Made by a program: the position numbers and the translations under genes
NCBI GenBank assembly: GCA_037951105.1
Contig: JBAMJV010004304.1
Span: 1-64,000 of the forward strand
Direction of reading: 5' to 3'
Origin: Echinarachnius parma
Lineage: Eukaryota; Echinodermata; Echinoidea; Clypeasteroida; Echinarachniidae
DNA length: 64,000 nucleotides
Notes under the pieces: generated by a model
What the model was told of the DNA's origin: nothing
The model's database searches: none
Seen by the model: only the letters and a program-made list of their open reading frames with translations
Shown here: piece by piece, positions 13,946-48,996 of the stretch
How positions within the stretch are numbered: the stretch's first letter is position 1
Layout: every line of letters starts with the position of its first letter

Positions 13946-14361
13946 ATCTCCACCCCCAACCTATCCCATTTTTCACAAAAACACCTTCCCGGTACCAATC
14001 TAGAAACATTCCAGATTGATTGCTTAGAGGTGGTGGACGAACGATACATGGTTGCCGAGTTCTCGATTAAAAGAGTAGCGGTGCACCATACATCTATTCA
14101 TAGTATTGTCATGGATTTTTTTGGTTAACAATATGATTTAAGTGCAATACACTTGGATGATTATTTGTTTAGTTCCCCGACTTGAGAACTAGAGAAACAT
14201 TTGTCACTCTAGAGAGGAAAACTGATAATCTACTTTATATGTTGTGAGAACAAAAATCCTGCCTTTATCCTATGTTTTGACTCTAACCTGTGTTTGTTTT
14301 GAACTTTTTTGAAATAACAACATTTTAACCTTCCACAAGGGAGGTTAAATTAAGCTGAACT
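13946..14361 (+). other. Probable promoter and 5' UTR region of the lectin receptor
   Basis: Sequence immediately upstream of the signal-peptide exon. An in-frame TGA lies two codons before the proposed ATG. I see no convincing TATA box, so the transcription start is not placed. Confidence 0.35.
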
Positions 14362-14407
14362 ATGTACAGAATTCTTGCTCTGATTCTTCTGGTGCAGCCT
14401 GCAATTG
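14362..14407 (+). CDS. Receptor exon 1: signal peptide
   Basis: ATG opens [16 protein letters not shown], a short n-region with one Arg followed by a hydrophobic core, then donor GTAAGT in phase 1. This phase fits the first lectin exon at 17377. Base -3 is A, and an in-frame TGA lies just upstream. The link to exon 2 across a 3-kb intron is inferred from phase and from the lack of another signal-like exon. Confidence 0.65.
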
Positions 14408-17400
14408 GTAAGTGGAAACTCTTTTTATGTTCCCTTATTATGTTCCCTTATTATGTTCCCTTCTCTTTTTATGTTCAATCATAATCCATCTAAAAACAAA
14501 ATTGATGTGTTGGGTAAAATAAAAAAAATTTAAAAAGAATGTTAAAGGTTTTATTTTCCATACATAGCATATTTTAATGCATCTGATTCAATTCATTGTG
14601 TTAGGTTAATTTTTTTTTAAAGGTTCCACTTTCCCTAATCTGCTTATTATAGTATATCAGGGTAAGAGAACAAAAGAATATAAAGAACTTGGACCAGCAA
14701 AATCACTCTGCAAAAATAGTGGTTTATATATACATCTGCATATATATCTGACTCTTTCTACTGCAGTCAACAGTAGTTGAAATACATGTAGACTTGTTTG
14801 TATGCATATTATATTAACAAATTTTGTTTATTTAATATGTTTGACTATTTCTTTCAAATATATGTAACTTTATTAAAAGAAGGTGTAATTCTTGTGAAGT
14901 ATGTGCAATTTGTAAATCATGATTGGAAAATTAATTTTCTATTTTCAATTTCACTAGATTTTTTTGTTAATATGTTGTGATTTTGGTTGTTTTTTCAATC
15001 ATGTTACTGTATTAAGTTGTATGAAAATTATGTATTGTTGATTAATCAATACATTCAAGCATTGATTTTGTCCATACCATACACATTTTGGTTAGAAGTT
15101 GAGCTCAATGTTGAAAGTAATATTTATAAAAAAAAGTATATAAAGAAGTTTCTTTTGAATCAAAGAAGAGGGAGAACAATTGAGTTTCTGTTTGAAGTCA
15201 TGCTTCAATGAAGTATATATCTAGTACTAGTATAATTGCCCATGTGTAAATTTGTCCCAAAATGCCTAGAACATGTTGACCATGATTCTCTTTCGGAAGT
15301 GAATATGTGCATTGCGATCGAAAGTTTAAAACGTTAATTCTTATGAAATACCAGTACTGATGAACTTTCATGCTGACATACCATGATTCTATTTAGTTGA
15401 ATACTTGAAATAAGAAAAATGTTGAAACCTTCTGCAAGCTTCTGAAATACAAGTAGTTCAGTCAGAGTTACTTTTGACCAACCATTGATGCATATTCATG
15501 GTGATGATACAAAGAGTCTCATGGAATAGTTCAGCATCATGATAAAACTATGGGCATGTAATACAAATATAAAGTAATAAAACAATGGTTAAACCAATTC
15601 ACTATAATAGTAAATATGTTCAGATTTATGCACATTCTTTGCCTGATGGCCAGGAGAAAAGTTTTTATATTCAATTATCCCATTCCTATCAAATATAATT
15701 CAAGAAATGGATTCCACCATGTATACGTTATTTGTTGCTATATCAGGCATATCTCAGGCAAACTACCTAGGTCCATATTTATAAAAACCTGTATGCTAGC
15801 TTAGTTCCATGCTAAGAGTAATTCAAATGATTACTGTATGTAGTCATTAGCTGACTATAAAGTATAAGCCTGAGGTAACTCATTCAGTTAACCCTAGTTA
15901 GCAACTAAAAGAGCAAGAGTTTAATTCTTATCTACTCCATACAAAGTGGACTTAATATCATGCAACTAATCTAGCGGGCTGTTATGAATATGGGAGCAAG
16001 AACATCCTTTGTTAAAAGGATGTATACATGAAATGTGTATATTAGTGAACCAATCATTGTTTGTACCTAGGTTGACCCACACGCAAAACAAAAAAATGAG
16101 CTATTACATGCGACTTGCAGTTTTTGTTTCTTTCATAATGATGCTAACAAACCATAAAACTCATCCAGGTATCTTGAAAAGGGCGCAATCATTTATGATC
16201 GATTATAGAGTAGTTAAATTCACCAGTAAACAAATCAAGGACATTTTACAAGCATACTGATGGGTCACAACCTTCATGTACACGTACATGTACACTTGTT
16301 TATTTTTCCTTCTTTGTAAAATGGCAAATAGTGGAATCAGTGTTTGCAAATAAGACATTATAGGGTAGTCAAGTTTCAATCTAGATTCTTATCTACCAGT
16401 TACGGTTATCTGTCTGTAAGTCGTTATCTTTAAAATCCCAGTTAGGGTCCAGGAATATTGTAGGCAAGTTCGGTGCTGTGATCGATGCCCTGTTATCTAA
16501 TGTTTATTTGTCTACTTCTCTCTAATAAGCTTCTTTGCCAATGAAACGCCCCCTCGTTAATCGCCCAATCAGATTTGATGTTTGCTTCCGTGACAGGCGG
16601 GACTTTGCACAGATTTTAGTCAATTTTCTTGGATTATTTAGTTATGTAGAACCTTGATTGGTATAGAACATAGAGCTTTCAGAGTATAACACTAACATAA
16701 TTTTTTGTTTATATAATAATAATAATGATAATAATAATGTTGTATTAATAACGCACATGTCACATATTTCTCTATGCGCTGTTAGTGTAAAATAACACTT
16801 TTGTTTGAGCTAGGTAGTTTTTCCCAGGCTCCAGGAAATGTGATAATTTTTAAGCAAATGGATGCATATGTACATTATGAAACATTACATACATGTACAT
16901 GAACTTGATAATATCATATTGACAATAACCACACAAGCTGAATTATAAATATTTAATTCCAGTGATTATTTATATAGTTTTGATTCAAAATTAATCAGTT
17001 ATTATGCATATAACCCTTCATTCATAAACACACTTTTGCTGTTAATTGGATGCCATTCAAAGCAAAAAACTAGCTTGAAGTTTCTGTTTTATAAAAATGT
17101 TGTAAATGTCTAATGATTGTAACTTCTATGACAACAGCCAATCAATTAATAATAAATTATGTTGTATACACTTTTATTTCCCCAGTACTGTGCCAGGTGT
17201 GTGCTACCGGATGGACGGCGTACGAGGACAACTGTTACCTATACTGAACTCGGACAGTAAGAATTGGCACGAGGCCCAGATCTTGTGCAAGTTCTTACTG
17301 CCTTTTTTTCTTCTTTAGCTAACCATCGAGAGGGTTAAATAATATATTCTGTTCTATACCCTTTTATTTTTCCCAGTGTTGTGCCAGGTGTGTGCTACCG

Positions 17401-20400
17401 GATGGACGGCGTACGAGGACAACTGTTACCTACTGAACTCGGACAGTAAGAATTGGCACGAGGCCCAGATCTCGTGCGAGAACGATGGAGGAAATCTTGC
17501 CATGCCACGATCACAAGAGGTCACTGTAAGTGTTGATATTAAAAAATGGAGACACAATATTTTTCTGCTTTGACAATAATTGCTCTGAGGGTTTTATCAA
17601 CACATTATTGTTCAGTGAAAGTAAGGGTTGATGTTTTGTTAGGATTAAGATAATCAGTGAAAAATATGTGGGGGGCTCTGGCTATTTAGCCCCCGAAGTG
17701 CCATGAAGAGCCCCCAAAAAATTGTTAAAGTGCCCCCTTAAATTTGCATACAGTTCAATGCAAAACAATTTTTAGAGTGCCGTTTTCATGCAGGCGAGCT
17801 TGAAAAGTAGCCCCCGAAAAATACATTTAAATTTTTCCTCTGAAAATAATGATTAGGGTATAAGTTTCAGGGTTTTTGTTTGGCTAAGAAATCTATATTC
17901 TTTGGGTATATGAAAAATTAATAGCAGAGTCACTTTTCCCCTTAGCTTATGTCATGGAACCCTTTACTGTATGTAATAATTATTCTGTGTCATAAAACTT
18001 CATGTAATCTTTGTGGTTGCTTACATTGTAGTATGTGTTTTCATTGTTTTTTTTTTATTTGTTTTTTTTAACTTTAACCCCAGGATGTGTTGGTTCAGAT
18101 GATCAATGCTGCTTCGGGTGGGAGTCATTGGATAGGAGTACACGACATCAGCAACGAGGGAACTTTTGTCTTTGTCGACAACTCTGCCATCACAACTCCG
18201 TAAGTTTAAGACATCCCTTTTAGTTTTTTTGACAGTTCCTAGTTGAAGAAATTTACTATTACTGAGTCTCTCTCCTATATCCCTTTCAGAAGCTCTTTTC
18301 AGATTCAAGAAATTATCCAAAGGAAATGCTTGCTCCTTTATATCAGTCTAACATGCGTCTCAATAGTATTTTTTTAGAACTCTAAACAAATATATCCCTT
18401 TTATTTTCCCCTTTTTTTTACTTTGCTCTACTCTGGAACTATTCAACTGAAAGTATATACCTTTACTAATTTAAAAATCCACTTCTCTATTAACTCTCAT
18501 AATATTCCTAGAATATTTTCTAGAATGACCCTTAGTCATATCAGCTAACAGTTTGAGCTGTGATTCTGTATTATATTTCAGGAGCTTAACCATTCCTTAT
18601 TTAAAACTGCATTGTGATATTTAAAAAAAAAGTTTGAGTGTTTTTCTCTTTGTGTGAAGTTAATTTTGTTTGTCAATAAAGGAAGGACCCCCTGAGAACA
18701 ACTGATATCTTGGTAATTATTGATGAAATCATGTTGCCATGGTATTGACAAAATGTTTAGTATTTGTCAGAGTTGATGAGATTTTACTCTTGAAAAGTAT
18801 GTCATATGTTTACACCGTATTAAAAGATTGAATGCTTGCACTCTTATATTATTGCATTTGCATTTATCATTATTTATATGAATTTTACTGTATCAACTAT
18901 ATATATATATACTGCTAATAAAATAACAAATATTGATATTATTATTAGATTCATTGTTAGTATATTATCATATATTATCACCATGATTATTATTCAAGTT
19001 ATCAATATATATCAATATTAGTGCCAACTTTCTTAGCTTTATAAACTCCTATACATAATACCTACAGGACAGGCTGTAGCCTATATATTAACGCCTCGGG
19101 TACTTTGCTCAAGATCTGTGGAAACCTGTGTGGGTGTTTTTGCTGGAGTTCTTTCGGTGCGGTGTCTTCGATTGCCAGTAGTAATAGACGAAGTAGTAGC
19201 AGTAGTACTTGTAGTCGTAGTAGTAGTAGTAATAGTAGTTGTAGTAGTTGTTAGAGGTAGTAGTACTAGTAGTAGTAGTAGTAGAAGTAGTAGTCAAACA
19301 TATCGGTACCTTTGTTTACTACAGGTATTGGAATGCTGGAGAACCAAACGACTATGGTGCCGGCGAAGATTGCACGGAGATCGTCAACACAGGTCTCTGG
19401 AACGACCAAGATTGCTATTCTATCAGGCCATACATCTGTCAAAGAGACAATGGTATTTATCAAACTATAATATGGGGGGTCATTTTTGGTATCTTGGGAA
19501 TTGGTTTACTTTCAGGTATTGGAATGCGGGAGAACCGAATAACGATTACGTTGGAGAAGACTGCGCAGAGATTGTCTACACAGGCCTGTGGAACGACCAA
19601 GACTGTTATGCTATCAGGCCGTACATCTGTCAAAGAGACAATGGTAATGACACTGTCACCAGTTGATTAGGCCTAATACACAATACAAGCATAATTTAGA
19701 TCAAATTACAAACAAACAAATTGTCAAGAAGTTTTCAAAGATGCTTGTAATAAACTACATAGTTCACATTTTTTTCTATTGGTAAATGTACGATCATCAT
19801 TGCGTTACGATCATTACAAATAACGATTGATTGCCTTTTCAAAGATTATCAGTGTTAAAGTGTGATGAAGACAACGGCTGGCTGTTAGCCGCAGGTCGCT
19901 GCTATAAATTTTACGACCTCATGGATCTAATTGTAATTTTTCTCCTCTAAAAATTTACAAAAATGCTTTTAGTACATCAATAAGCACCGTCTGTTAGGTA
20001 CTAATGCACTGATTGTTACTGTTATTATTATAAATTAACTTTGATTGCATAATTAATTCCCAAGACTATATAGTTAAGTGTGACGAGGGCAATGGCTGGG
20101 TGTCGGCAGCGGGTCGCTGCTACAAATTCTACGGCGACACCAAAACATGGCAGGATGCAGATAACTATTGCAAGGCCGTCGACGGAAATCTCATCTCCGT
20201 CAACTCAGAGGAGGAACAGGCTGCCGTCACGACGCAGGCAAACTTTGGTGGCACGACGATTTGGATCGGTCTCTCTGACAGCGTGAGTAGTTTAAACAAT
20301 TAATTTTTTCGTAAAAATTGATCTAGTATTTGTGATCCTCAAACGGTCAAAGAGATAGTGTGGTATTTTTTTCATTGTTGTTAATGGAGCAAACTATCGG

Positions 20401-23400
20401 AATGTGGGAGCTGTAATATTCAAAACCGATAAAATCATGCTTGAAATTATGTCAACAAAATGTTTCTAAAAACGATGAAGTTATTTTCAGAAAATGCAAT
20501 TTAAAGAGATCTAGTTACATTGTCCAAATCCACAAATTTACTTATAACTCTGATTGTTCTCTCATACCTAGTTGTATTCATATTACCAATAGGGGCATGG
20601 AACAGGGTAATGGTTTTTATAATTGTTCCCTTTCTGTAGAAATATATTTACGACTGAAGTGCTTGGATATTAAACTAACATTTTAGCCAATTATGAGCTC
20701 TTATATTCTTTTCTGCATTGAATATGTACAGTATCTTGGCATAATCTATATTCTGTGTCATTTTTTGTTTGCAGTCTGGTAATTACAAGTGGAGCAGTGG
20801 TGAGGATATTACATACACAAACTGGGCTCCCAACCAGCCAGATAGCAGGTGAGATCATCTGTATACAAAATATGATAGTCGGGGCTCGCACTAGCACTTC
20901 CCTTGTAAAAAAGTACTGCAGTACAACGGCAGTAAATTTACCGCAGTAGTACCGCAGTACTTTTACTGCGGTACCCGCAGTACATTTACTCCAGTAAATT
21001 GGACGGAAAATACTGCGATAGTACTGCGATAGTTCTGCGGTACAAGTACTGCGGTACTACTGTGGTACTACTGCGGTGCTACTGTAGTACTAGTACTAGT
21101 ACTGCGGTATTACTGCGGTAATTGTACTGCAGTGATACTGCTGTACTTCGGTACTACCACATTACTACCGCAGAACTACTACAGTACGATTACCGCGAAT
21201 TGTGCGATAGGACTGCCAGTACTGCATTTGTACTGCGTTAGTACTGCAGTAATACCGCAGTAGTACCGCGGTAGTCTGCAGTAATACCACATGTACTACG
21301 ACTAATGCAGTAGTACCGCAGTACTACTGCGGTACTACTGCAGTTTTTCCGCAGTACTTTTTTACAAGGGTTGCCTAGGGGGGCGTTGCATAAAACTCAA
21401 AACGCAAAGTTGTGTTTCTTCTAGTTTTATGCAACACCCCCACAGGGCAAGTAGCAATTGATGTTGGGCAAGTTAGATTTCATAAAGGGTCTATTTTGGT
21501 TACCCGATCGGACAACTAACTCTTCTCCACAACTATGAGAGTAGAATGTAATTTGTTACGTGCATATCTCATTTAGAAGTAAGCGGGCAAGTACATTTTC
21601 TGTCTGGGCAAATACAATTTCAACATTTATGATTTTACTTGCCCGAATGAGCCAGTAGGAAGAAGAAAAAAACAGTTAGTGTGAACGCTTGTGATAGTGA
21701 TAATATGAATAATGATTCATATTTAAGTATGGTTAAGATATTCCATCAAAAAGGATTGGTAATTGTGATATTATATTTTGTTTCACTATGTTACTTCCAA
21801 CGTTGATTGCAATATCACAAGATTTTGGCATTTAGTACTTCAATAGTGCCATCTAGAGCCTTGGATTCAAACAACATTATTATCACTTACAACTATTAAT
21901 TTGTACCTTTTATGTAGTATTCTTTTTTTACATTTTATTTATTTATTTTTATTTTGACAAAAATACCCAATATTCATGAATACCCCAAAAGAAAGATCTT
22001 GCATGTATCAATCAAGCAGTTCCATTGATACTATTTTCTACCCCTGTAGTGAGGTCAGAAGCTGTTGACCTTTGATATAAGAACAGATTTTAACTTCATT
22101 TTACTTCATTTTACATTAGATTTTCAAGCAGTGGAGGTAACTGCGTGGAGGTTTTGGACACATCAAACAATGGAGAGTGGTCGACCATGACATGCACAGC
22201 CACGCAGAACTTCATGTGTGAAAGAGCAGAAGGTGAGGACAAAAAACAAAACAAATGTGTTTTTGTAAATTTTCAATTATTTTCAAGTTCTTTTTCAATT
22301 AAATTCAATTTGAAGAAAATATAATAATATATTACTGTTAAATAAATCCGTCTTCCAACATGTTTCCATTGGATCTTCAATAAACCTTATGTATAGTGAC
22401 CATCTGTAAATGGAAAAATTAAAATGACCACTGTGGACAGGTTCCATAAGATTGTTTTCTCTGCAAGGGAATCAATTTTGGTGGCCACTATAGGTAGGTT
22501 GGCTATAGACAAGTTGCCACTAACACAGGTTTGACTGTATTTCCATTTTTGGAAGTTCACCCAGCAGCGCACAGAAAAAAAGGCTTAAGATGAATATTTT
22601 TTGTTTGCATCAGATTTGCAATAAAAATAAATAACAGACCATTACATGTCTCTCCCTGAGTAGAAGGATAGTATTATGACAGGGCTTGAAATTAGCACTG
22701 GTAGTCTGGTCCCAGCCACTAAAAATTAGCTTCACACAGCCACAATTTCATTAATCAAATTATCCAAATGTTGCTTACCCAGATAGGCAACCGTATAGAA
22801 ATGAATTGTTAATATACTTCTGTATGTTCTCTAATAATTAATCCAGTTTGAGAACATATTTGAAAAGATATACAATATATTTATGTTTTTCTCTAACTAT
22901 CTAGCTTGTATTTTCCTTTTCCATCGGAAGAAGTTTACCCGATTGCACAAAATAACAACTTATTTGGAGGAAATGTATTTTAATAGCTAGTTGCAACATG
23001 AAAAAACAGCCGACTTACGGGTCTCTCCCTTGTTATTAAGCTATAGGCTTAGGGAGCATACCTTGTTACCAGTTTCTCTGGTGTAGAAACTTCTACCAAA
23101 AAAAGATGAAGCTCATAATTTGTATACATTTTCTAACCAGGTACGTGCCCCCAGGGTTGGCGAATGTTCCGTGGCTACTGCTTCCAGTTTAACACCAACA
23201 CTAAGGCTACGTGGGTTGACGCCAAGCACACTTGCGAGGCCCAAGGAGCGTACCTTGCCACAGTTCTCTCGGACGTTGAGAACAAATACATCCAAGACTA
23301 TTATCTGGATCTGGAGAGTCTGGGTATCATGTCATCATGGCTCGGCCTTTCAGGTTAGTTCATATTCTGTAATAACTGGTTCTCCTTTTGAGTACATTTT

Positions 23401-26400
23401 TAATTTATAAATATCTTGTATTAAGTTATTTTGATTAGTAGTATTTTGGAAGGGTCTACAAATAAAGTTTGTCCTTTCCTTAGCTATTTTATTAAGTATC
23501 TATGTATTTTCATGATATATAATTCATAGTAAGGAATGCGTTTTTCCACGATGTTACCATTAATTCACATTCACAAAAGATGCATTTTCTTTCCAACTTT
23601 CTCACCAGATACGGAAAACGACGGTCTGTTTGCGTGGGTAGAGGGGAGCTCGTTGGGCTATACCAACTGGGACAATGGACAACCAACCGATAACACTGGT
23701 ACCGATGACTGTGGCTCCATGACTACAGGTTAGTCCCACATATTATAATATGTGTTTGAATATATATGCTATCATAAATCCCTATATATTTGGCTGGTAT
23801 ATTGCACATATAATGTCTTGTTTGTGAAAGCAACCTAAATCCATTATACGTGAGACTTGTGTGTTTGACGATTGTGCAATATGGGTAGATGCATGGGAGC
23901 TTGGTGGGCTGTACCAATTTGAATGATGGTAATTGCAATAATATTGGAGGATCTGTGGAATGATTGTTAAGGGACAGCTTTTTTATCATAAAGAACCATT
24001 TAGTCTTCTGTAAACCAATAATAAATCAACGTAGCGGTGCAGTCTTCTCTTATACAGTCTGTCTACTTTTGGCTGGTCATAACTACAATTGTAATATGAT
24101 GTAATAGCAAATGATTGATTTCATTTTTTCGTACAGCTGGTGGAGATGGTAGTTGGTCAACCAAGAACTGCTTCGTACTGGAGGCATACACCTGTAAAGT
24201 CAGAGCAGGTAATTAAGCAATATTGCTTTTACAACCAGTTTGTATTTAAGTTAGTTGGATAACTTGTTTGTTTGTTAGTTAGTTAGCTAGTTAGTTAGTC
24301 TGTTTGTTTGTTTTTTAACTAGCTAATTAGTGAGTTGTAGTTTAGAAAGTTATTGAGTACATTTTAATGATCTGTATTTGTAAATGAAATTATTAAGACC
24401 ATTAGTCTGTAATTTTATATTGATTATTATTAATTATAGTAAATATTTTCTTGCTTTCTAATTCAGTGGATATTTAATGAAGACAATTAAGAAGCTTCAA
24501 CATTCAGATAATCTCTTCTTATTCATGCGGTGATGTATATTTTGATTCCTCCAGGAAAGAGTTCATAGAAACGAAAATAAATCATGGTTAATTTCTAAAT
24601 TTAATTCATGGTTAATTTCATTCCCTTACAGGCCAGCCCGTCTTTCCCTTAAACCCAAATGTTGGTAAGTTGATATTGATAATCCTTAATTATATGTTTT
24701 GTCTCACTCTCTCTTAAATATTTACCAGCATAGTTGATTTGTATATACTATACTGATGGTTTGTGTAATTCCTTGCATTTTTTCTCAGTTTGACTCAACA
24801 AGCTAAGTGTTTTACAGTTTCAAACTCATTACAAGGGCATGTTTGGACCAAAGAATATGATTTAGATCTTTATGATTTAGCTATTTAGACTCTTGGCTTG
24901 AACTAGACAAACACATCCAAATATTGATTGAGATGTTGGCTCTTGTTTGAACTAATTTCCAGATTATGGTGACTCAAATTCAACTTTTCTATAATCGATA
25001 GCCATTAGATTTCACGGTCGAAGCTCTTTGGCTGTTCAACTGTGAACACTGTTACTTACTTGTCAATAGTGCATCTCTATTCAGCAATTATCATTTGTTC
25101 TTTTGTATCTCTTCTACATCATACATAACCCTCCACATCCCTGGATCTCATTAATAAAATCATTATTATTACTTTAACAATAATCTTTATTTTTGTACCA
25201 TTATTATAGCCATTGGATCGTGTGAGGCCGGCTGGACACTCAACCGTGACAATTGCTACAAGCTGGTGAACAGCGCGGCTTACTTCAGCGAAGCAGAGTC
25301 CAACTGCATCTCCATGGGAGGTCATGTGACCAGCGTCAACGACCAGGAGGAGCAGTCCTTCCTCTCAAGTGAGTCTTGGACCAGGATTCTTAAAGGGATC
25401 TAGTACCTTTGTGGACATTTGTGCAAAAACTGAAGATAAGGCTTGTTAAAATGTATATTTCTGTAAATCTGATATGTCCACTGAGTGATGTGAGAAATTT
25501 CATGGTAAATGAATGCCATATGGCCGAGTAATGAGCGAAAAATGCAAAGTGATATTTGCAAACTCATTGCCATGACTTTGTACACAGTTTAAATTCTCCA
25601 GTGGATACAAATATGAATGCAATTACTGTAGAAGGAAAACTGACTGGATAAAGATTGAAGAAATTGAAAATGAGCAAATGAAATGGACTCTGTTTTTTGC
25701 TTATGTTACACTTTTTAAAAATTTCGCACAATTTGCTCACATTTGTTCCATCTTTCTCCTTTTTGCTCCATTTCTGTAATTGTTGTATGATTGCAGTGCG
25801 CACAGCCTTAGCGGCAAGGAACGTCTTTATTGGCTTCACTGATAACTCCAACGAGGATAACTTTGAATGGAGTGATGGCTCACCGGTAAGTACCTTTGAA
25901 GAAGATGAATGCATGATAATGATCCCCTCAAAATGTAATGCCTTTATAGTCAACTGTCTACATGTTATTCTCATCATTAAGCCTCTGAAGAAGATTCTGC
26001 TAGGATCGAAAGCTCGGGTCCTTTTCCGACTATCTGTTTAATTTACAAGGGTTTTTTTCTCAGTAGGCAAGCAGTTTTAAGCAGTCTTTTCCTTCATTCT
26101 CATTTGATTACACATTCATTGTTTGGTAGATATATAAGCAGTTATCAGCAGTCTGTTGCAATTCATTCACATTTGATTAGGTGACATTCACCAACTGGGC
26201 TCCATACCAGCCAGATGACTGGAGCGATGCCGGACAGGACTGCTCCTACATGAAGTGGGAGGAGGACAAGGAGGGGATGTGGGACGATATCAACTGTGAC
26301 AACACTCGCTACGCTTACATGTGCAAGAAACCTAAGAGTAAGTGTTGTATAATTTGTTTGTTTGGGATATTGGTTGAAATTTGAAATTGAGATTTCACTG

Positions 26401-28349: not shown

Positions 28350-31300
28350 ATTTTGAATGATTAATTGTTCAGTTAGTCAATTAATTTATTATAGTTCACC
28401 AATGTTGATTTCTTTGTTCATTCATTCATACAATTTTTAAATCATTAATGAGTTAATACAATTTATTTTTATATTGATTTTTGTTGGTCAATCATTCAGT
28501 AGTTGATTCGTTCATTGGTTGTTGATAAATGTTTTTGTTTGAAGCTTGTTATTCATTAATTATTTCTTGTCCTTTACAGATGAGCCCAATGACTATGACC
28601 CAGGTGAACACTGCGTGGAAATCAACCGTAACACAGGGAAGTGGAACGATTACTTCTGTGACCGTGGACTCGGGTACATCTGCAAAAAATCAGGTGAGAG
28701 GCTTCAAAGTTCATACATGAAAATATGAATAATGTTACATTATATGACAAATACCTGGCGAACCTACTGTTATTGCAGTTGTAAATTATTTAATTTTTCC
28801 ATGTGTATCGGAAGATATCAAAGGAAATCTTGTCATCTGCTGCAATATGGTTTAAAAAAACAGTGCTGCTTAGTGCCAATAATTTAATCAATTAAGTAAT
28901 CAATAAAGTAGAAAGTATGCCACAGCTTCATTACCATGGATAATTGTTCTAAACAATTTGTCAGGCAAGCCAAAAGTTTGTAATCTAGTGGTTGCTAAGA
29001 AGACAGTCCACCAGTTCCAACCCACTATCTTAAATTCAATCAAACAAACAAGTTGGTTAATGCCAGTACTACATTAGATAGCAAAAGACTGTGATATAAT
29101 CACTTTGGTACTGTATATAGTTGACGTCTTTCTTCAAACTTTCACGTCACAGGATATCTGGTCACCCACTACAACGTTGTCCCCAACAACTACTTGGACG
29201 GTGCGGACACAGCGATCCTACAGAACATTTACCCCGAGGATTGCGCCCAGGCCTGCTACAACGCCAATGATTTCACCTGCCGCTCCTTCGACTACCGACG
29301 CGCAACCATGGAGTGTGCCCTCAGTGATAGCACGAGGGACATGGGATCGTCGCTAGTTGGCAGTAGTACCAGCGACTACTATGAGAGATGTAAGCTGCAA
29401 GAGAAAATAAAGCTTTCATGCTTGTTCTTCTAAATCCTAATTAGACAAGATAAACATGTGTTTACCTAATTGTGAATCAGTTGTTGAGATCTCTAGACTT
29501 GGACCAAATAAAGCATACATGCTACATGAAACCTACGATGAACAATGAGATAGACCATACAGCCCTAACTTTTGGAGCATTATTCTACATGAAGCCAAAG
29601 CAATTTTACTGACTTTTTTACAGTTCATGTTATGTATGATGGAAACAAATAGACAAAAGAAAATTTATATGCATTAGTTACACATATTTTATTAATTCAA
29701 TGTACATGTAATTAATCTAGTGGAGATGGTGCACACAATGTGTGCGAACTGTCATTGTATCCTTGGACCGGGGTAATGATAGTGTTAGGCGCTTAGAGAT
29801 GATATTGCATCATATTGGGCGCAAAATAAATCGAACCAATTATTGTTACCTAGACATTTTCCATATTTCAGCAAGTTAGAGTTATATACTGATACGTTTT
29901 CTTGCAGTGATGTCGGTCGTCGACCCACCACCCACCACCATCCCTCCCGGCTTCCGATGCCGCAACGGATGGAGTCCATATGGAAGCAACTGCTACTATG
30001 TCCAGACCTCGGTTGGGACCTATTATGAGGCCCGCAGCCAATGCCAGGCCCTGGGAGGGGACCTAGCGTCAGTCCATGATGTCAACGAGAACAGCTTTTT
30101 GCAGGCCCTCTACTCACAAGGTCAGTCGATCAGCTTTTCAAGTTCTTTCAATTTGAGAAAAGATTTTAACTTCAAACTATCTTTGATGTTCTGGGAGTTC
30201 TTGTTCTCCATTTCCAATTTTTATTCCAAATGATCTTTTAATGACACAGTGTCACCAGATGTTGTTTGAATGGACCGATGGAACTGTGGTTGACAACAAT
30301 TTCTAGAATAATGGGGAGCCAAAAACTGGCATAGAATTTACTATTACCACACTTTCCTAAAAGCAATCAATTAATGAGTGTAAAGATCTGTAATTGAGAT
30401 TGCCAACATCTTAATTAACAAAATCTTTTTGTTGTTGAATATTTCAGCGGGAGTCAATAGTGCTGTCTGGCTTGGTTTGACTGATCTGCGAGTCCAGATG
30501 TTGTTTGAATGGACCAATGGAGTTGTGTGGTTGACAACAATTTATTGAGTACTGGGGAGCCAAAAGCTAGCATAGAATGAACTATTACCACACTTTGCCA
30601 AAATTAATCAATGAGTGTATAAGGATCTGTAATTGAGATCTTCAACATCTTGATTAATTTTTTGTTGTTTTTGTTGAATCTTTCAGCGGGAGTCAACAGT
30701 GCTGTCTGGCTTGGTTTGACTGATCTGCGAGTCCAGATGTTGTTTGAATGGAGCGACTTAACTCCAGTGGACTACACTTTCTGGAACACTTTGGAGCCAA
30801 ACAACTACGGCGACAACAATGAAGACTGCGTGGAGATGAACACTAATGTAAGTCATATTTCAAACAATGCCAACCAGTTGATAACGCATTATTTGCTCCA
30901 GGAACAATTGCTAACTTTGTTTCTTATCATTTTAGTCGCCATTGGGTTTGGATTAGGGTTAGTGTTTGGGTTAAGTTAGGATTAGAAATCAATTAAAAAA
31001 CAACCAGACATTGCTGTAACAATTGTTTCCATCTTTGTACTATAGTATGACCTACATGATTGTATTATAAGTATATGCATACTTCTATTTATCTCCCATT
31101 GGTCATATATTTTATTTGTCTTACACTTTATCGCAGAAGTTGGGAAGCACTCCGAGCATTATTACCTTTGCTTTAGTTGAGCAACCGAGCATGGTGGCAT
31201 AGCGGTTAAAGTGTCCGCTTCATGCACGGGGGCGTCACAGGTTTCAAACCCAGACCGGGTCATACCAAAGACTTTAAAAATGGTGCCTTCTGCCTGCTAG

Positions 31301-47427: not shown

Positions 47428-48996
47428 TGTGTATTTAAATAACATTTTGTAACCGTAGTCAGTGAGTTTTGTTTTATTGTTCACCCATCTCTTAGTATCG
47501 GCATCAGGCGGGCCAACACAACCTCCTCCTCGGACGCAACCCCAGGGAATGACATCCAAAAACCAAGGTGAGCAATATTGAGTTAAAATTATATAAATGT
47601 GTTATATTAATTTCGCATCTTGTTTGTCACAACTAAGGCATGGTCATTTAGAAAAAGATTTATATTATTTTGATCATATCTTAGCAATAAGTCATAAAAT
47701 AAAAATAGTAATTATTGCAACATTTACATTATGTCAGGAAATTGCTTTGCTTTTGTGCATTAAAGCTAAGCCTACTGTATGATGATTTAGAAATGATTGA
47801 TATTATTTTGAACAAACATTAGAAATAAGTCATTAAAAAAAGAAATAGTAATTACTGCAACATTTCCAATCTCTTATGTCAAGATATATACTGTAAGGCA
47901 GTAAAACGAATTCAAAATTTAATAATATTCGTTGTTTTAATTTTGTTTCAGGTGGTTCAAAGCAGCCAGCAACTGCAGCTCCCGTCACAGGTTCATGTAA
48001 GTCAACATACTACTCTATGAAACAATTTGTTCCCTTTTGGCTAATTATCCCAGTTAGGAGTCGCCACATCAGCTAGTGGATTGAACTCCTAAATATTCCC
48101 CTGTCCAGTGCATCCTTCTCTGTTACACCACAGTCCTCCCTCACCATGCCCTTACCAAACCTCCTCTTTGATTATCATTATCCTCGTTTCATTATACTTA
48201 GCAACTCCATCTCCTCTTGTTTTGATATTGATAATCAAAACCTCTCAATTTTAGCCTGTTCATTGCATCACCTTCTGTTACACCAACCAATAATGTGTCC
48301 GCTCTCACCACATCCATATACATTGTACCTCCGCTTTGATCATCCTCATTTCTTTCTCCATGACACCTCCATCTCCAGCATCCTTTTCCCATATACCATG
48401 TCTCCCTCTGAACAGGTCTTAGGCTTCTCTATTAAATAATCGTCATAATAATCGCCCAGAGATCAGTTACTTTTCAGAGTAGTTTTTCCTAATTCAATTT
48501 TTTTTTTTTTTTAAGGAAATGGGGTTAACATAGTTAGATTCCTGGGGAAGCTCAATTTTAATCTGATTTCTCTCCTCTTTTTACCAGAACCAGAAAAAGA
48601 ACAAAGAAAGTGTGTTTTGAAGCACAGTAGTTAGACAAATTTGGGGGTCTTACAACATTCCATTCTCATTGAATCCCAATTTCCTTGGACAGTACAGTAT
48701 ATTATTTCTGGTCAGGTTCCCCTATATATGAATTTTATTTGATTTATCTCCGTTCTCTTTATTTTCACCTCTCTCCCACAGCCATGTCGACAGGGGCCAT
48801 CATCGGAATCATCTTCGGCGTCGTGGTTTTATTGTGTCTCACCCTCCTCCTCGTATTCTTCATGTATTCAGCAAACCGCAAGAACGCTTCGCTCAAGGCG
48901 CCGGCCCCATCGCCAAACAGCTCAGGCTTCGATAACGTGGTTTATAACGAGAAGGATGGGGCCAATTTCTCGGCCGCATTTGACTCGAGTGCCTAA
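14362..48996 (+). CDS. Multi-CTLD transmembrane lectin receptor, 12 CTLDs plus PAN domain
   Basis: Predicted type I cell-surface receptor of 1,928 residues, mannose-receptor-like in plan. Coding exons: 14362-14407, 17377-17525, 18084-18199, 19325-19452 or 19516-19643, 20074-20282, 20775-20848, 22120-22232, 23141-23353, 23609-23728, 24137-24208, 24632-24664, 25210-25368, 25797-25885, 26181-26337, 26745-26783, 27131-27304, 28081-28197, 28580-28693, 29153-29389, 29908-30120, 30687-30847, 31923-32033, 32599-32714, 32965-33113, 33277-33491, 33837-33997, 34560-34606, 35103-35273, 35703-35747, 35951-36135, 36795-36862, 37391-37485, 38025-38288, 38550-38701, 39109-39208, 39717-39964, 42592-42760, 46048-46299, 46993-47166, 47496-47567, 47952-47996, 48782-48996. 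All phases join without a stop. Seven CTLDs keep EPN and WND (mannose-type). Several intact or decayed extra exon copies lie beside the used ones. It could be two transcription units, but unbroken phase and a single signal peptide and membrane helix argue for one. Confidence 0.88.
14408..17185. other. Receptor intron 1
   Basis: AT-rich intron. Three copies of a 14-bp word (TTATGTTCCCTTAT type) at 14426-14470 form a tiny minisatellite. A stretch at 15770-15915 (GTTAACCCTAGTTAGCAACT) resembles 56505-56665 and is probably a worn dispersed repeat. No further exon recognised. Confidence 0.5.
17186..17290 (+). pseudogene. Broken tandem copy of receptor exon 2
   Basis: Repeats the acceptor and the first 100 or so bases of the exon at 17377 almost exactly. 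Two extra bases after GTTACCTA shift the frame into an immediate TGA, and the copy diverges before any donor. It lies about 190 bp upstream of the used exon. Confidence 0.9.
17377..19643 (+). CDS. Receptor CTLD1 with alternative 3' exons 4a and 4b
   Basis: Exons 17377-17525, 18084-18199 and then either 19325-19452 (4a) or 19516-19643 (4b); residues about 17-146. It starts [16 protein letters not shown], has WHEAQISC and WIGVHD, and ends in the Ca2+/sugar half. Exon 4a reads [13 protein letters not shown] and 4b reads [13 protein letters not shown]; both then carry LWNDQDC and YICQRDN. Both are 128 bp, enter in phase 2, leave in phase 1, and are separated by only 63 bp. Using both would shift the frame, which points to mutually exclusive use. 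EPN and WND indicate a mannose/GlcNAc/fucose-type Ca2+ site by family rules. Confidence 0.9.
17665..17830. repeat. Dispersed 'AGCCCCC' repeat, copy 2 (inverted)
   Basis: Reverse-complement relative of 11758-11920, lying in the intron after exon 2. Confidence 0.6.
19186..19297. repeat. GTA trinucleotide microsatellite
   Basis: About 110 bp of AGT/GTA triplets directly before exon 4a. Frames through it are artefacts of the period. Confidence 0.9.
19862..19925 (+). pseudogene. Decayed copy of the start of receptor exon 5
   Basis: Around 60 bp resemble the beginning of the exon at 20074: the translated block [19 protein letters not shown] is close to [19 protein letters not shown]. The copy then runs into unrelated sequence and a stop. 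Confidence 0.8.
20074..22232 (+). CDS. Receptor CTLD2 (QPD type)
   Basis: Exons 20074-20282, 20775-20848 and 22120-22232; residues about 147-278. Long-form CTLD with KCDEGNGW and GRCYKFY at the start, [15 protein letters not shown], then NWAPNQPD and a final MTC..FMC cysteine set. QPD is the galactose-type motif in the family. The usual WND is replaced by WST, so Ca2+ binding at the principal site is doubtful. Confidence 0.88.
20900..21370. mobile_element. Fold-back element built of GTACTGCAGTA-like words
   Basis: Bounded by exact inverted repeats of 20 bp (CCCTTGTAAAAAAGTACTGC and its reverse complement). The interior is almost only variants of TACTGCGGTAC and CAGTAGTACCGCAG in both orientations. 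TT flanks both ends, and the related unoccupied sequence at 3878 reads AGCACTTGCC, which supports a TT target duplication. No coding content. Confidence 0.8.
21378..21441. mobile_element. Mini element with GGGGGyGTTGC inverted ends
   Basis: Starts GGGGGGCGTTGCATAAAACT and ends AGTTTTATGCAACACCCCC, a nearly perfect hairpin of about 64 bp. A related unit with GGGGGGTGTTGC and GCAACACCCCCC ends lies at 42077-42183. Confidence 0.6.
22395..22540. repeat. Worn dispersed repeat in intron
   Basis: GGACAGGTTCCATAAG, GGTGGCCACTATAGG and CACAGGTTTGACTGTA resemble 63805-63945 and similar stretches; the right end (TTTGACTGTA) looks like a terminal repeat of TA-inserting small elements. Confidence 0.4.
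23141..24208 (+). CDS. Receptor CTLD3 (non-canonical site)
   Basis: Exons 23141-23353, 23609-23728 and 24137-24208; residues about 279-413. It begins [16 protein letters not shown], keeps WVDAKHTC and WLGLS, and has [15 protein letters not shown] replaces QPD or EPN, and the last block is GSWSTKNC with no WND, so sugar binding by the standard Ca2+ mechanism is unlikely. The cysteines of the fold are present, ending YTCKVRA. Confidence 0.88.
24632..24664 (+). CDS. Receptor linker microexon (33 bp)
   Basis: Encodes [11 protein letters not shown], phase 1 to phase 1, with donor GTAAGT. It separates CTLD3 from CTLD4. Because it is a multiple of three, it could be skipped without a frame change. 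Confidence 0.65.
25210..26337 (+). CDS. Receptor CTLD4 (QPD type)
   Basis: Exons 25210-25368, 25797-25885 and 26181-26337; residues about 425-559. Blocks [61 protein letters not shown] and MWDDINC, ending YAYMCKK. QPD points to galactose-type preference by family rules; WDD keeps acidic ligands at the WND position. Confidence 0.9.
26486..26564 (+). pseudogene. Decayed 3' fragment of the CTLD4 last exon
   Basis: About 78 bp repeat the end of the exon at 26181-26337 (block [23 protein letters not shown]), but TAG follows directly and there is no acceptor. Lies about 150 bp downstream of the original. Confidence 0.9.
26565..26690. repeat. ATT trinucleotide microsatellite
   Basis: Imperfect TAT/ATT run in the intron, with some TTA/ATC variants. 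Confidence 0.9.
26745..26783 (+). CDS. Receptor linker microexon (39 bp)
   Basis: Encodes a Pro/Ala-rich spacer ([13 protein letters not shown] type) between CTLD4 and CTLD5, with acceptor TGCAG and donor GTGAGT. It is a multiple of three, so it can be skipped in frame. Confidence 0.65.
27131..28693 (+). CDS. Receptor CTLD5 (EPN type)
   Basis: Exons 27131-27304, 28081-28197 and 28580-28693; residues about 573-707. Blocks [62 protein letters not shown] and KWNDYFC, ending [10 protein letters not shown] plus WND: mannose-type Ca2+ site by family rules. Both introns contain decayed copies of its exons. Confidence 0.9.
27305..27890 (+). pseudogene. Tandem cassette: tRNA-like box plus exon-16 fragment, four copies
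   Basis: A unit of about 150 bp repeats four times with growing decay. Each starts with TGGCCTAGTGGTTT (A-box-like), then a B-box-like word (GGTTCAAATCC at 27352, GGTTCAAATCTC near 27508, AGTTCAAATCTC near 27796). It continues into the 3' part of the exon at 27131 (AACTGGGATGACGC..GGCGGAGAGCTTCT..GACAACACAGAACAAGC). The copy at 27525-27615 is closest and even ends CAATGGTGAGT like the real exon. None has an acceptor with an open frame. Confidence 0.75.
27950..28012 (+). pseudogene. Truncated copy of receptor exon 17
   Basis: The acceptor context TTATTTAACCC..AG and the first 30 or so bases of the exon at 28081 recur (CTCGTCTGGCGTACCTTACTGA), followed by a stop and then a detached CTGGAAGGC word. 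Non-functional. Confidence 0.8.
28198..28352. repeat. (ATTG)n microsatellite at a splice donor
   Basis: About 150 bp of GATT repeats begins directly behind the donor of the exon ending at 28197. Confidence 0.95.
28918..29100. repeat. Dispersed repeat, copy 2 of a pair
   Basis: Relative of 11515-11700 (TTTGTCAGGCAAGCCA, GCTAAGAAG, CCAACCCACTA). Confidence 0.6.
29153..29389 (+). CDS. Receptor PAN/apple domain exon
   Basis: One phase 1-1 exon of 237 bp, residues about 708-786. It has the PAN/apple pattern: [20 protein letters not shown], then [14 protein letters not shown] and a closing YYER. PAN modules mediate protein or carbohydrate contacts in plasminogen/HGF-type proteins and in many invertebrate lectins. 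As a symmetric 1-1 exon it could be skipped or shuffled. It divides the ectodomain into CTLD1-5 and CTLD6-12. Confidence 0.82.
29720..29835. repeat. Worn SINE-like tail, copy 1
   Basis: GTGCACACAATGTGTGC, GACCGGGGTAATGATAGTG and GGCGCTTAGAGATGATAT resemble 34880-35035 and 32870-32950; the last blocks look like SINE 3' bodies (AAGCGCTTAGAGG). Confidence 0.45.
29908..32033 (+). CDS. Receptor CTLD6 (EPN type) with N-terminal Pro linker
   Basis: Exons 29908-30120, 30687-30847 and 31923-32033; residues about 787-948. The first exon begins with a spacer ([12 protein letters not shown]), then [16 protein letters not shown] and YYEARSQC. The second has [34 protein letters not shown]. The third has AWNDISC and IPSICKLPK, then a spacer that ends at PSGCAL, the start of CTLD7. 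EPN plus WND: mannose-type. Decayed exon copies precede the second and third exons. Confidence 0.9.
30245..30590 (+). pseudogene. Two decayed tandem copies of receptor exon 21
   Basis: Copy at about 30252-30345 has only the middle (ATGTTGTTTGAATGGACCGATGG). Copy at 30448-30590 keeps the acceptor and about 70 bases nearly identical to the exon at 30687, then runs into TGA at ACAATTTATTGAG. Spacing of about 200-240 bp suggests serial tandem duplication. Confidence 0.9.
31186..31455 (+). mobile_element. tRNA-derived SINE, copy 1
   Basis: GGTGGCATAGCGGTTAAAG (A box) and CAGGTTTCAAACCC (B box) form a tRNA-like head, followed by GGTCATACCAAAGACTT, TAGCCAGGCGCTCGGCATT and AGAATGGAGAAGG. The tail ends near AAGAACTTTAACTT. 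A second, more worn copy with the same block order is at 46735-46945. Confidence 0.75.
31756..31808 (+). pseudogene. Copy of exon 22 whose final Cys codon is a stop
   Basis: With acceptor TTGCAG, it reads [15 protein letters not shown] in frame with the preceding exon, then TGA where the used exon at 31923 has TGT (Cys). GTGTGA follows at 31809. It may be dead, or it may act as an alternative ending that gives a soluble receptor of CTLD1-6. Confidence 0.8.
32488..32550 (+). pseudogene. Truncated copy of receptor exon 23
   Basis: CGTTCACAG plus GGTGAGACGGCATACAG..TCATGCTACGGAGC copies the start of the exon at 32599, then diverges. Lies about 110 bp upstream of it. Confidence 0.85.
32599..33277 (+). 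CDS. Receptor CTLD7 (non-canonical site)
   Basis: Starts at the end of exon 31923-32033 (PSGCAL) and continues through 32599-32714, 32965-33113 and the first part of 33277-33491; residues about 943-1065. Blocks [51 protein letters not shown] and LWKNVPC, ending YLCERT. QPA and WKN replace the usual Ca2+ ligands, so canonical sugar binding is unlikely. Confidence 0.87.
32870..32950. repeat. SINE-like 3' tail with ATT run
   Basis: TTGTAAAGCGCTTAGAGG followed by GGCACTACATATATCGAGTAT and TATTATTATT; this layout is typical of SINE/retroposon ends. The head is not clear. Confidence 0.5.
33128..33240. repeat. GAT trinucleotide microsatellite
   Basis: Imperfect ATG/ATC repeats just before exon 33277. 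Confidence 0.9.
33277..35273 (+). CDS. Receptor CTLD8 (EPN type)
   Basis: Exon 33277-33491 ends CTLD7, then has a Pro-rich spacer ([15 protein letters not shown]) and starts CTLD8 ([17 protein letters not shown]). Continues in 33837-33997, 34560-34606 and 35103-35273; residues about 1093-1234. Blocks [42 protein letters not shown] and GWNDKEC, ending WICKMEK. A long acidic stretch (DPNVDEEDI) between the first strands is unusual. EPN plus WND: mannose-type. Confidence 0.9.
34880..35035. repeat. Worn SINE-like tail, copy 2
   Basis: TGGAATGCTCCCCAGGGAGTGG, GTGCACTTTGTGTGC, GACCGGGGTAATAAAAGTG and GCGCTTTATAAG. Shares blocks with 29720-29835. Confidence 0.45.
35280..35565. repeat. GTTAGTTA-type degenerate tetranucleotide repeat
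   Basis: Irregular TTAG/TAGT words over about 280 bp of intron. A similar shorter run is at 24255-24345. Confidence 0.85.
35703..35747 (+). CDS. Receptor linker microexon (45 bp)
   Basis: Encodes a Pro/Thr/Ser spacer ([15 protein letters not shown]) between CTLD8 and CTLD9, phase 1-1, suited to O-glycosylation. Skippable in frame. Confidence 0.7.
35951..38090 (+). CDS. Receptor CTLD9 (EPN type)
   Basis: Exons 35951-36135, 36795-36862, 37391-37485 and the first part of 38025-38288; residues about 1250-1380. Blocks [59 protein letters not shown] and RWNDINC, ending FICKKS. EPN plus WND: mannose-type. This domain uses an extra intron in the middle compared with its neighbours. Confidence 0.9.
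36150..36485. repeat. TTCAGTTCAA minisatellite
   Basis: About 330 bp of CAGTTCAGTTCAATTCAGTA-like words directly after the donor of exon 35951-36135. Confidence 0.9.
38025..39208 (+). CDS. Receptor CTLD10 (EPN type)
   Basis: Exon 38025-38288 closes CTLD9, has a spacer ([13 protein letters not shown]), and opens CTLD10 ([16 protein letters not shown]). Continues in 38550-38701 and 39109-39208; residues about 1397-1537. Blocks [41 protein letters not shown] and KWNDMTC, ending FICQTS. The donor of the first exon reads CAAT|GTAATT, the least standard in the gene. EPN plus WND: mannose-type. Confidence 0.88.
39465..39520. repeat. 12-bp tandem repeat (CTGGCACTGGCC type)
   Basis: Four copies of a 12-bp unit (CACTGGCCTGG) in the intron before exon 39717. 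Confidence 0.85.
39717..42760 (+). CDS. Receptor CTLD11 (EPS type)
   Basis: Exons 39717-39964 and 42592-42760; residues about 1538-1676. Spacer [11 protein letters not shown], then [50 protein letters not shown] and GWDDHSC, ending AMCKYS. EPS and WDD are near-canonical but not the mannose triplet. The two exons are separated by 2.6 kb that holds a TIR element and a decayed exon copy. Confidence 0.88.
40387..41787. mobile_element. TA-flanked element with 27-bp terminal inverted repeats
   Basis: The start TACCGTATTTCTCGGTGTAT and the end matching its reverse complement (GGGTAATACACCGACAAATA then CGGTA) are inverted repeats of about 27 bp with one mismatch. TA at both ends suggests a TA target duplication, as in Tc1/mariner-type insertions. 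Subterminal words GCGGTTAATACACGGAGATA recur at 40453 and 40684, with a related word (GCGGTTAATACATCGGAG) near 41744. No transposase frame. A separate long palindrome lies inside (40973-41158). Confidence 0.8.
40973..41158. repeat. Long palindrome, 87-bp arms, 13-bp loop
   Basis: Arms 40973-41059 and 41073-41158 are almost exact reverse complements (ATGCTCCGATACAGC..CATCCGCCGGG). GC content is higher than in the surroundings. Probably a younger insertion nested in the TA-flanked element. Frames crossing it on both strands are mirror images and not genes. Confidence 0.9.
42077..42183. mobile_element. Mini element with GGGGGGTGTTGC ends and C tract
   Basis: Starts CAGGGGGGTGTTGC and ends GCAACACCCCCC followed by a long C run. 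Relative of 21378-21441. Confidence 0.5.
42391..42515 (+). pseudogene. Frameshifted copy of receptor exon 37
   Basis: Follows acceptor TTCCCAG. Reads [10 protein letters not shown] like the used exon at 42592 ([10 protein letters not shown]), but inserted bases shift the frame and a TAG is present at GGCTAGGATGAC. About 200 bp upstream of the original. Confidence 0.9.
43515..43940. repeat. Cluster of GGTCACGTGTGTGAC words
   Basis: Imperfect palindrome GGTCACGTGTGTGAC occurs at 43521, 43701 and 43922, with GGTCACTGTGTGAC at 43898. The core TCACGTG is a bHLH-type E-box. Short reading frames between them show no family resemblance. Confidence 0.6.
44007..45208 (+). mobile_element. GCTCATC hairpin / CGTCC element, long copy
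   Basis: Same start hairpin, CGTCCGTCC run and end word (TACGTCATTGACGTTCTGGTT) as 9216-10005. The internal unit of about 157 bp (ATGCAAATTTATTCC..AATGCTTCTTCTCC..GACCGATTTTGAT) is repeated four times, with starts near 44267, 44424, 44582 and 44740, against one in the short copy. The first and last blocks (GCTCATCCGGC, GCCGGATGAGC) are an exact 11-bp inverted repeat. Confidence 0.85.
45612..45975 (+). pseudogene. Two decayed tandem copies of receptor exon 38 start
   Basis: Around 45650-45735 and 45838-45930 the start of the exon at 46048 recurs. The second has acceptor CCCCACAG and reads [17 protein letters not shown], then loses the frame after the CYLF block. Both end in GATCATGTC-like remnants. 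Confidence 0.9.
46048..47166 (+). CDS. Receptor CTLD12 (EPN type)
   Basis: Exons 46048-46299 and 46993-47166; residues about 1677-1818. Blocks [58 protein letters not shown] and KWNDLDC, ending YVCKTPK. EPN plus WND: mannose-type. This is the membrane-proximal domain. Confidence 0.9.
46394..46509 (+). pseudogene. 3' fragment copy of receptor exon 38
   Basis: GCTGGTGGTAACCTAGCTAGC..GAGGCTACACCTTTAAGTAAA repeats the last half of the exon at 46048, including a donor-like GTAAAT, but has no acceptor. About 95 bp downstream of the original. Confidence 0.88.
46735..46945 (+). mobile_element. tRNA-derived SINE, worn copy 2
   Basis: CATCTGCCTCATGTATGGGAGG, GGTCATACCAAAGACTTTT, TAGCCAGGTGTTTGGCATTC and AGAATGGAGAAGGAG match 31186-31455 in order. 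Confidence 0.7.
47270..47430. repeat. Compound GATT / GAGT tetranucleotide repeat
   Basis: GATTGATT, then about 60 bp of GAGT, then about 85 bp of GATT, in the intron after exon 46993-47166. Confidence 0.95.
47496..47996 (+). CDS. Receptor stalk: two Pro/Thr-rich linker exons
   Basis: Exons 47496-47567 and 47952-47996, phase 1-1 each, encode Gly/Pro/Gln/Thr-rich sequence ([15 protein letters not shown] and [11 protein letters not shown]) between CTLD12 and the membrane helix. Likely an O-glycosylated stalk; either exon can be skipped in frame. Confidence 0.75.
48595..48745. mobile_element. Decayed relative of the 8601-8790 tRNA-like element
   Basis: AAAGAACAAAGAAAGTG, GAATCCCAATTTCC and TATTTCTGGTCAGGTT match the left arm, right arm and tail of 8601-8790. 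The tRNA-like core is no longer recognisable. Confidence 0.5.
48782..48996 (+). CDS. Receptor membrane helix, cytoplasmic tail and stop
   Basis: Encodes a hydrophobic helix ([20 protein letters not shown]) flanked by YSANRK, then a tail of about 40 residues to TAA. The tail has FDNVVY, which fits the FxNxxY endocytosis signal seen in LDL-receptor and mannose-receptor tails. No ITAM, ITIM or kinase motif is visible. This points to internalisation more than direct signalling. Confidence 0.9.

What the first reader, a model, noticed from the sequence alone, without database searches (positions are those of the whole stretch)
19325..19643. Mutually exclusive exons that swap the sugar-binding loop of CTLD1
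Two intact exons of exactly 128 bp, same entry phase (2) and exit phase (1), 63 bp apart, both with AG..GT borders, encode the EPN..WND half of the first lectin domain. They differ mostly right after EPN (NDYGAG against NNDYVG) and at one further loop residue (N to Y), that is, around the ligand site, while the scaffold is conserved. 128 is not a multiple of 3, so including both breaks the frame; inclusion of exactly one is required. The intron between them is very short, which would hinder their joint splicing. This is a plausible mechanism for changing ligand specificity at the outermost, membrane-distal CTLD.
Basis: partly seen in the sequence, partly recalled or inferred. Interest (0 to 1): 0.85.

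Follow-up and report, generated by a model that had tools for sequence, protein, structure and literature searches.

The report
Swappable sugar-binding exons in lectin receptor
An animal cell-surface lectin gene carries two intact, interchangeable copies of the exon that encodes half of its first sugar-binding domain, both apparently kept by selection, so splicing could choose which sugar-binding surface is displayed; no RNA has yet been seen to show it.

Summary
Two 128-bp exons (A 19325-19452, B 19516-19643), same phases, AG..GT borders, 63 nt apart, encode the EPN..WND half of CTLD1 in a large receptor gene. Skipping both gives a stop at the junction; joining both shifts the frame. They are not alleles: the second haplotype contig C773 carries both, same order and spacing. 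A against B: dS 0.8, dN 0.08; simulations with one copy neutral give so few replacements in 0.1-0.5% of runs. Between haplotypes A has 0/128 and B 2/128 changes, both synonymous. Thirteen other tandem exon copies found in the gene are all partial and change faster, 6 of 13 with gaps. Gaps between other listed exons are 255 nt or more, so the 63-nt intron suggests a steric block. Differences cluster in the loop after EPN. Mutually exclusive splicing is strongly predicted but unobserved, as no RNA data are held; altered ligand specificity is inference. It would be a new member of the known class of mutually exclusive tandem exons; six lectin-directed literature searches listed no precedent in a CTLD.

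The parts
14362..14407 (+). Exon 1, signal-peptide-like start ([15 protein letters not shown])
   Evidence: open in frame with the following 21 listed exons; donor gtaagt; no match in the fetched stretch of the other haplotype
17377..17525 (+). Exon 2, CTLD1 first part
   Evidence: 1 synonymous change between haplotypes
18084..18199 (+). Exon 3, CTLD1 middle part, ends in phase 2; shared upstream partner of A and B
   Evidence: 2 synonymous changes
19325..19452 (+). Exon 4[14 protein letters not shown] half of CTLD1
   Evidence: (0/128 differences between haplotypes)
19453..19515 (+). 63-nt intron between A and B; no AG except the acceptor
   Evidence: 2/63 differences between haplotypes
19516..19643 (+). 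Exon 4[14 protein letters not shown] half of CTLD1
   Evidence: (2/128 differences, both synonymous)
20074..20282 (+). Exon 5, first exon of CTLD2; shared downstream partner of A and B
17189..17291 (+). Broken partial copy of exon 2 (2-bp insertion and stop; 16 bases fewer in the other haplotype)
19858..19915 (+). Truncated copy of the start of exon 5
29153..29389 (+). PAN domain exon
   Evidence: Pfam PAN_1
48716..48996 (+). Last exon region: hydrophobic, transmembrane-like stretch and short tail
   Evidence: read from the translation; 5' border uncertain, no predictor run

Best explanation
A and B are a functional pair of mutually exclusive, tandem-duplicated exons in a mannose-receptor-like membrane lectin. 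Exon 3 is joined either to A or to B, and the chosen exon to exon 5. Joint inclusion is hindered because the 63-nt intron forces the branch point of B to lie within about 50 nt of A's donor, and any transcript with both or neither has a premature stop and is probably removed by NMD. The two proteins keep the calcium/mannose-type core (EPN, E, WND) and the cysteines, and differ in the loop beside the sugar site, so the likeliest effect is a shift in affinity or fine ligand specificity of the outermost CTLD. Shown: sequence anatomy, frame logic, presence on both haplotypes. Supported by indirect tests: purifying selection on both copies. Inferred: mutually exclusive use, steric block, NMD, ligand effect.
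For: Identical length, phases and borders; 22 listed exons including A join into 2921 nt without a stop, and with exons 1-7 either A or B is open. Skip gives a stop at the junction, A+B a frameshift. NG86 dS 0.815, dN 0.084. With one copy neutral, 41 of 12,702 simulated pairs over six settings (2 to 12 of 2002-2209 per setting) had as few replacements. Contig C773 has both exons, at 100% and 83% identity to the A query, as in the window; A 0/128, B 2/128 synonymous. In 29 exons compared between haplotypes: 105/4206 mismatches, 91 synonymous, 12 replacement, no gaps; in 13 partial copies 70/1074 and gaps in 6. Of 30 exon entries only A/B has a complete copy. Gap 63 nt against 255 or more between other listed exons. 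Both forms score as Lectin_C, 77 and 76 bits. Mannose-binding protein A chains are the best PDB match of the A half, ungapped. PMC5740500 (passages seen) lists donor-branch point distance under 50 bp and lengths not divisible by three as features of human mutually exclusive exons.
Against: No transcript evidence. A's donor (ATG|gtattt) scores below 29 of 30 other listed donors of the gene and B's (ATG|gtaatg) below 28 of 30 (some listed donors are uncertain), which fits regulated exons but also failing ones. The selection test averages over the time since duplication, so recent death of one copy is not excluded. The haplotype test is weak for single exons: three other exons of 29 also have no difference. 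No competing RNA pairing that would enforce choice is evident in 18200-20073 (two inverted repeats of 14 nt). No orthologue could be examined: the genome has no relatives in the collection. Human data show joining reads in 83 (22%) of the 377 clusters with lengths not divisible by three, so exclusivity need not be strict.
Confidence: 0.77

Rival explanations
1. Only one exon is used; the other is a duplicate that lost its splicing only recently and still looks intact.
For: The gene holds 13 partial copies of 8 other exons, so duplication and decay are routine. Donor of A has only one of 30 other listed donors below it.
Against: Low replacement count over a dS of 0.8; no replacement or indel in either exon between two haplotypes, while the partial copies differ at 70/1074 sites with gaps in 6 of 13.
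Confidence: 0.15
2. A and B are independent cassette exons, or one is an occasional poison exon: joint inclusion or skipping is used to switch the receptor off by NMD.
For: Both outcomes break the frame.
Against: A poison exon needs no conserved protein, yet both copies keep one; joint splicing needs a 63-nt intron whose branch point would lie under 50 nt from the donor (and inference).
Confidence: 0.06
3. Assembly artefact: A and B are alleles placed in tandem.
For: The individual is highly polymorphic and the assembly holds two haplotypes of this locus.
Against: Contig C773 carries both copies in the same order and spacing; A and B differ at 22 of 128 sites, listed exons of the two haplotypes at 105 of 4206.
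Confidence: 0.01

Closest known systems
Mutually exclusive tandem-duplicated exons (Pillmann et al. 2011, PMC3228551, passages seen; PMC5740500, passages seen; PMC9741552, abstract and passages seen)
   Same: Adjacent homologous internal exons of equal length, compatible splice sites and frames; frame-breaking joint inclusion; short donor-branch point distance
   Different: Lies in a C-type lectin domain; the terms lectin, immune and Dscam have no occurrence in the main text of PMC9741552 (its supplements not seen). Splicing itself unobserved here
Arthropod Dscam1 (recalled; review PMC12074976 seen in a listing only)
   Same: Alternative exons that change part of a ligand-facing domain of a cell-surface receptor
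   Different: Ig domains and many alternatives there (recalled); a CTLD and two alternatives here; no docking/selector-like pairing evident
Vertebrate mannose receptor family
   Same: Serial CTLDs in a membrane protein; the full CTLD1 is best matched in the PDB by members of this family (family membership recalled)
   Different: No cysteine-rich/ricin-type or fibronectin II match in the first 973 residues; PAN domain present; about 12 CTLDs by my reading instead of eight (architecture of MR from PMC12321717, passage seen)
Mannose-binding protein A CRD
   Same: Best PDB match for the A half, ungapped
   Different: B has a different loop after EPN; part of a multi-CTLD receptor

Membership tests
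Mutually exclusive exons | Neighbouring internal exons of similar length that are homologous | tested here: met
   128 and 128 bp, 106 of 128 bases identical
Mutually exclusive exons | Compatible splice sites and reading frames | tested here: met
   AG..GT, entry phase 2, exit phase 1 in both; each open in frame with exons 1-7
Mutually exclusive exons | Two places in one chromosome, not alleles | tested here: met
   Both on C4302 and both on C773
Mutually exclusive exons | Both copies functional | tested here: inconclusive
   Selection and polymorphism tests favour it but are indirect and cannot exclude recent loss of one
Mutually exclusive exons | Exactly one of the two in each mature mRNA | not testable with these tools
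   No RNA data held
Mannose receptor family | Cysteine-rich and fibronectin II domains before eight CTLDs | tested here: not met
   Pfam on the first 973 aa: six Lectin_C stretches and PAN_1; besides these only A33R, UL45 and Xlink models, which I take for cross-matches of the lectin fold; no FNII or ricin-type model at E 0.01
Mannose-type C-type CRD | EPN and WND motifs with the acidic residue between them | tested here: met
   EPN....GED..WND in both exons; residue roles are recalled
Mannose-type C-type CRD | Ca2+-dependent sugar binding | not testable with these tools
   Needs protein

The most novel reading that the evidence does not exclude
An innate-type lectin receptor uses mutually exclusive splicing of the loop that frames its sugar site, so that cells can switch ligand specificity of the outermost CTLD without changing the rest of the receptor: a small, lectin-based counterpart of Dscam-type diversification, seeded by the frequent small tandem duplications in this gene.
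Probability: 0.4. Interest if true: 0.75.

Novelty: new member of a known kind. Interest (0 to 1): 0.55.

Why it matters
If both forms are made, ligand choice by a C-type lectin receptor would be set by splicing rather than by gene number, and two proteins that differ at seven residues in the sugar-binding half of one domain would be a natural experiment in glycan specificity. The gene also shows the raw material: tandem exon copies in several stages of decay beside one pair that appears to have been kept.

Tried and rejected
Alleles placed in tandem by assembly: rejected, C773 holds both. Duplicate under no selection: disfavoured. Docking/selector RNA structure: none evident in 18200-20073. 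Rfam on 14000-24000: no match. That intact duplicated exons are typical of this gene: rejected, the 13 other copies found are partial, 7 of them with stops in frame. Further tandem pairs in paralogues: 16 loci (L005-L020) were examined; four of them (L010, L011, L019, L020) are other CTLDs of this same gene on the two haplotypes, and for the six minus-strand loci (L007, L008, L010, L012, L014, L019) my peptide translation was of the wrong strand, so only the DNA comparison counts there. Tandem rows overlapped the matched exon in L006, L008, L012 and L013, each in part only. A genome-wide Lectin_C scan for other such pairs could not be run: 13 identical requests did not complete. The organism was not identified: the COX1 query was unanswered. 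Literature: seven searches of the open library, six with lectin terms and one on the class in general; judged from listings, which were cut (15 of 23; 20 of 131; 15 of 257). No listed title or abstract start reports mutually exclusive exons within a CTLD. PMC9021376 (passages) counts one mutually exclusive event without naming the gene in the passages seen; PMC12737323 (passages) is general. Most subscription journals are not held. Structure prediction was not attempted.

Full report
What is there. The window is part of contig C4302 of an unnamed 1.2-Gb assembly. On the + strand, 14362 to 48996, lies what I read as one large receptor gene: a signal-peptide-like exon, serial C-type lectin domains (about 12 by my reading of the exons; six Lectin_C stretches in the first 973 residues), a PAN domain, and a last exon with a hydrophobic, transmembrane-like stretch. 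Twenty-two listed exons, with A in place, join into 2921 nt without a stop. The model is supported by a second haplotype contig, C773: of 30 listed exons (both A and B counted) 29 found a match there, exon 1 none, with 105 mismatches in 4206 bp, 91 synonymous, 12 replacement, 2 in codons not scored, and no gap. The listed exons at 33277, 38025, 39717 and 48716 were not in that comparison.

The pair. Exon A (19325-19452) and exon B (19516-19643) are both 128 bp, follow exon 3 in phase 2 and leave in phase 1 for exon 5. They differ at 22 nucleotides (6, 2 and 14 at codon positions 1, 2, 3) and seven residues; four of the seven are consecutive, directly after EPN (a run of four has a probability of about 0.01 if the seven were placed at random). 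An alignment with one codon gained and one lost in that loop needs fewer changes, so the loop may have changed by codon indels. EPN, the following glutamate and WND are unchanged. Both forms score alike as Lectin_C (77 and 76 bits). The A half matches mannose-binding protein A best among PDB chains and without gaps. In the alignments of that call two such chains differ from the others at places that correspond to altered residues here: 1kx0 at the Y/D place of the loop, 1kmb at the S/A place. That these are engineered forms made to study ligand binding is recalled.

Frame logic. Skipping both exons puts a stop at the junction; including both shifts the frame and ends in exon 7; retaining the 63-nt intron between both does the same. 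So only a single choice gives the full receptor.

Are both real? Three tests. First, substitutions between A and B: dS 0.815, dN 0.084. If one copy had been free of selection since the duplication, so few replacements at 22 differences would be rare: 0 of 400 in each of three settings with kappa 2 and 2 to 5 of 400 with kappa 4; in larger runs 2 to 12 of 2002-2209 per setting, 41 of 12,702 in all. Second, the two haplotypes: A 0/128, B 2/128, both synonymous, against 31/1096 plus 52 gap columns in intron 3, 2/63 in the A-B intron and 16/429 plus 22 gap columns in intron 4; for single exons this is weak, since three other exons also have none. Third, a built-in control: 30 exon entries were searched for copies within 900 bp (blastn, E up to 1e-4). 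Besides B, 13 copies of 8 other exons were found, every one partial by local alignment and 7 with stops in frame. Between haplotypes these differ at 70 of 1074 sites, with gaps in 6 of 13. A/B is the only complete pair. Searches show further short partial copies at exons 16 and 22 that did not reach the cut-off.

Not alleles. The search with A's peptide hit C773 at 169451-169576 (100%) and 169260-169385 (83%) and the window at the two known places with the same scores. Order, spacing and the length of the 63-nt intron are the same.

Mechanism. The A-B intron has 63 nt and no AG before its acceptor. Gaps between other listed exons are 255 nt or more (unlisted exons in the less well read second half could hide shorter introns). 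A branch point at least 15 nt from the acceptor must lie within 48 nt of A's donor; under 50 bp is the criterion for potential steric interference used for human pairs (PMC5740500, passages). In that study 57 clusters (9%) met it and 377 (60%) had lengths not divisible by three, so both traits are known in the class. How small introns of this species can be is not known to me, so the block is an inference. Both donors are weak within this gene (A below 29, B below 28 of 30 others), with a strong acceptor for A (above 23 of 29) and a middling one for B (above 11 of 29); this fits regulated use and, for A, also decline.

How common are such duplications? Clusters of short-distance tandem copies: 15 in 35 kb of this gene, 8 in 25 kb of eight of the 16 loci L005-L020, 5 in 24 kb of three stretches chosen without regard to content, and 4 in the 29 kb of the window outside the gene. 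The genome in general has them; an excess in CTLD genes is suggested but not established by these numbers.

Standing. The anatomy meets the published criteria for predicted mutually exclusive exons (PMC3228551, passages). What is missing is the defining one, one exon per mRNA. Six lectin-directed literature searches listed no such pair in a CTLD (two of the listings were cut); this says little about journals not held. The gene is not a mannose receptor in the strict sense (no cysteine-rich or FNII match in the part scanned). I put mutually exclusive use at 0.77 and a ligand-specificity switch at about 0.4.

Noticed in passing
17148-17480, 19810-20133, 26240-26574, 27206-27876, 30255-30806, 31666-31972, 32464-32636, 42384-42714, 45576-46509: Recurrent tandem copies of exon parts, mostly about 110-240 bp apart, in several stages of decay; partial copies also beside CTLD exons elsewhere in the genome (L006, L013).
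   Followed up: partly
46048-46299 and 46388-46505: The exon reads WFGF in the window but WVGF on the other haplotype, and the partial downstream copy in the window also reads WVGF; F may be the derived allele.
   Followed up: partly
19431-19455 against 19622-19646: The last 22 nt of A and B and the first three donor bases are identical, including synonymous sites; possible splicing element or local conversion.
   Followed up: no
19150-19294: (TAG)n-like microsatellite rich in AG ends about 30 nt before A's acceptor and differs between haplotypes (printout).
   Followed up: no
48850-48996: The C-terminal tail contains FDNVVY, resembling the FENTLY uptake motif of the mannose receptor (motif recalled).
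   Followed up: no
61889-62458 (-): Adenosine-deaminase (editase) domain stretch, ADAR-like; Pfam A_deamin 1.5e-49.
   Followed up: no
1-2621: Long tandem array, period about 158 bp.
   Followed up: no
20912-21361: Array of TACTGCGGTA-like units in the intron after exon 6.
   Followed up: no
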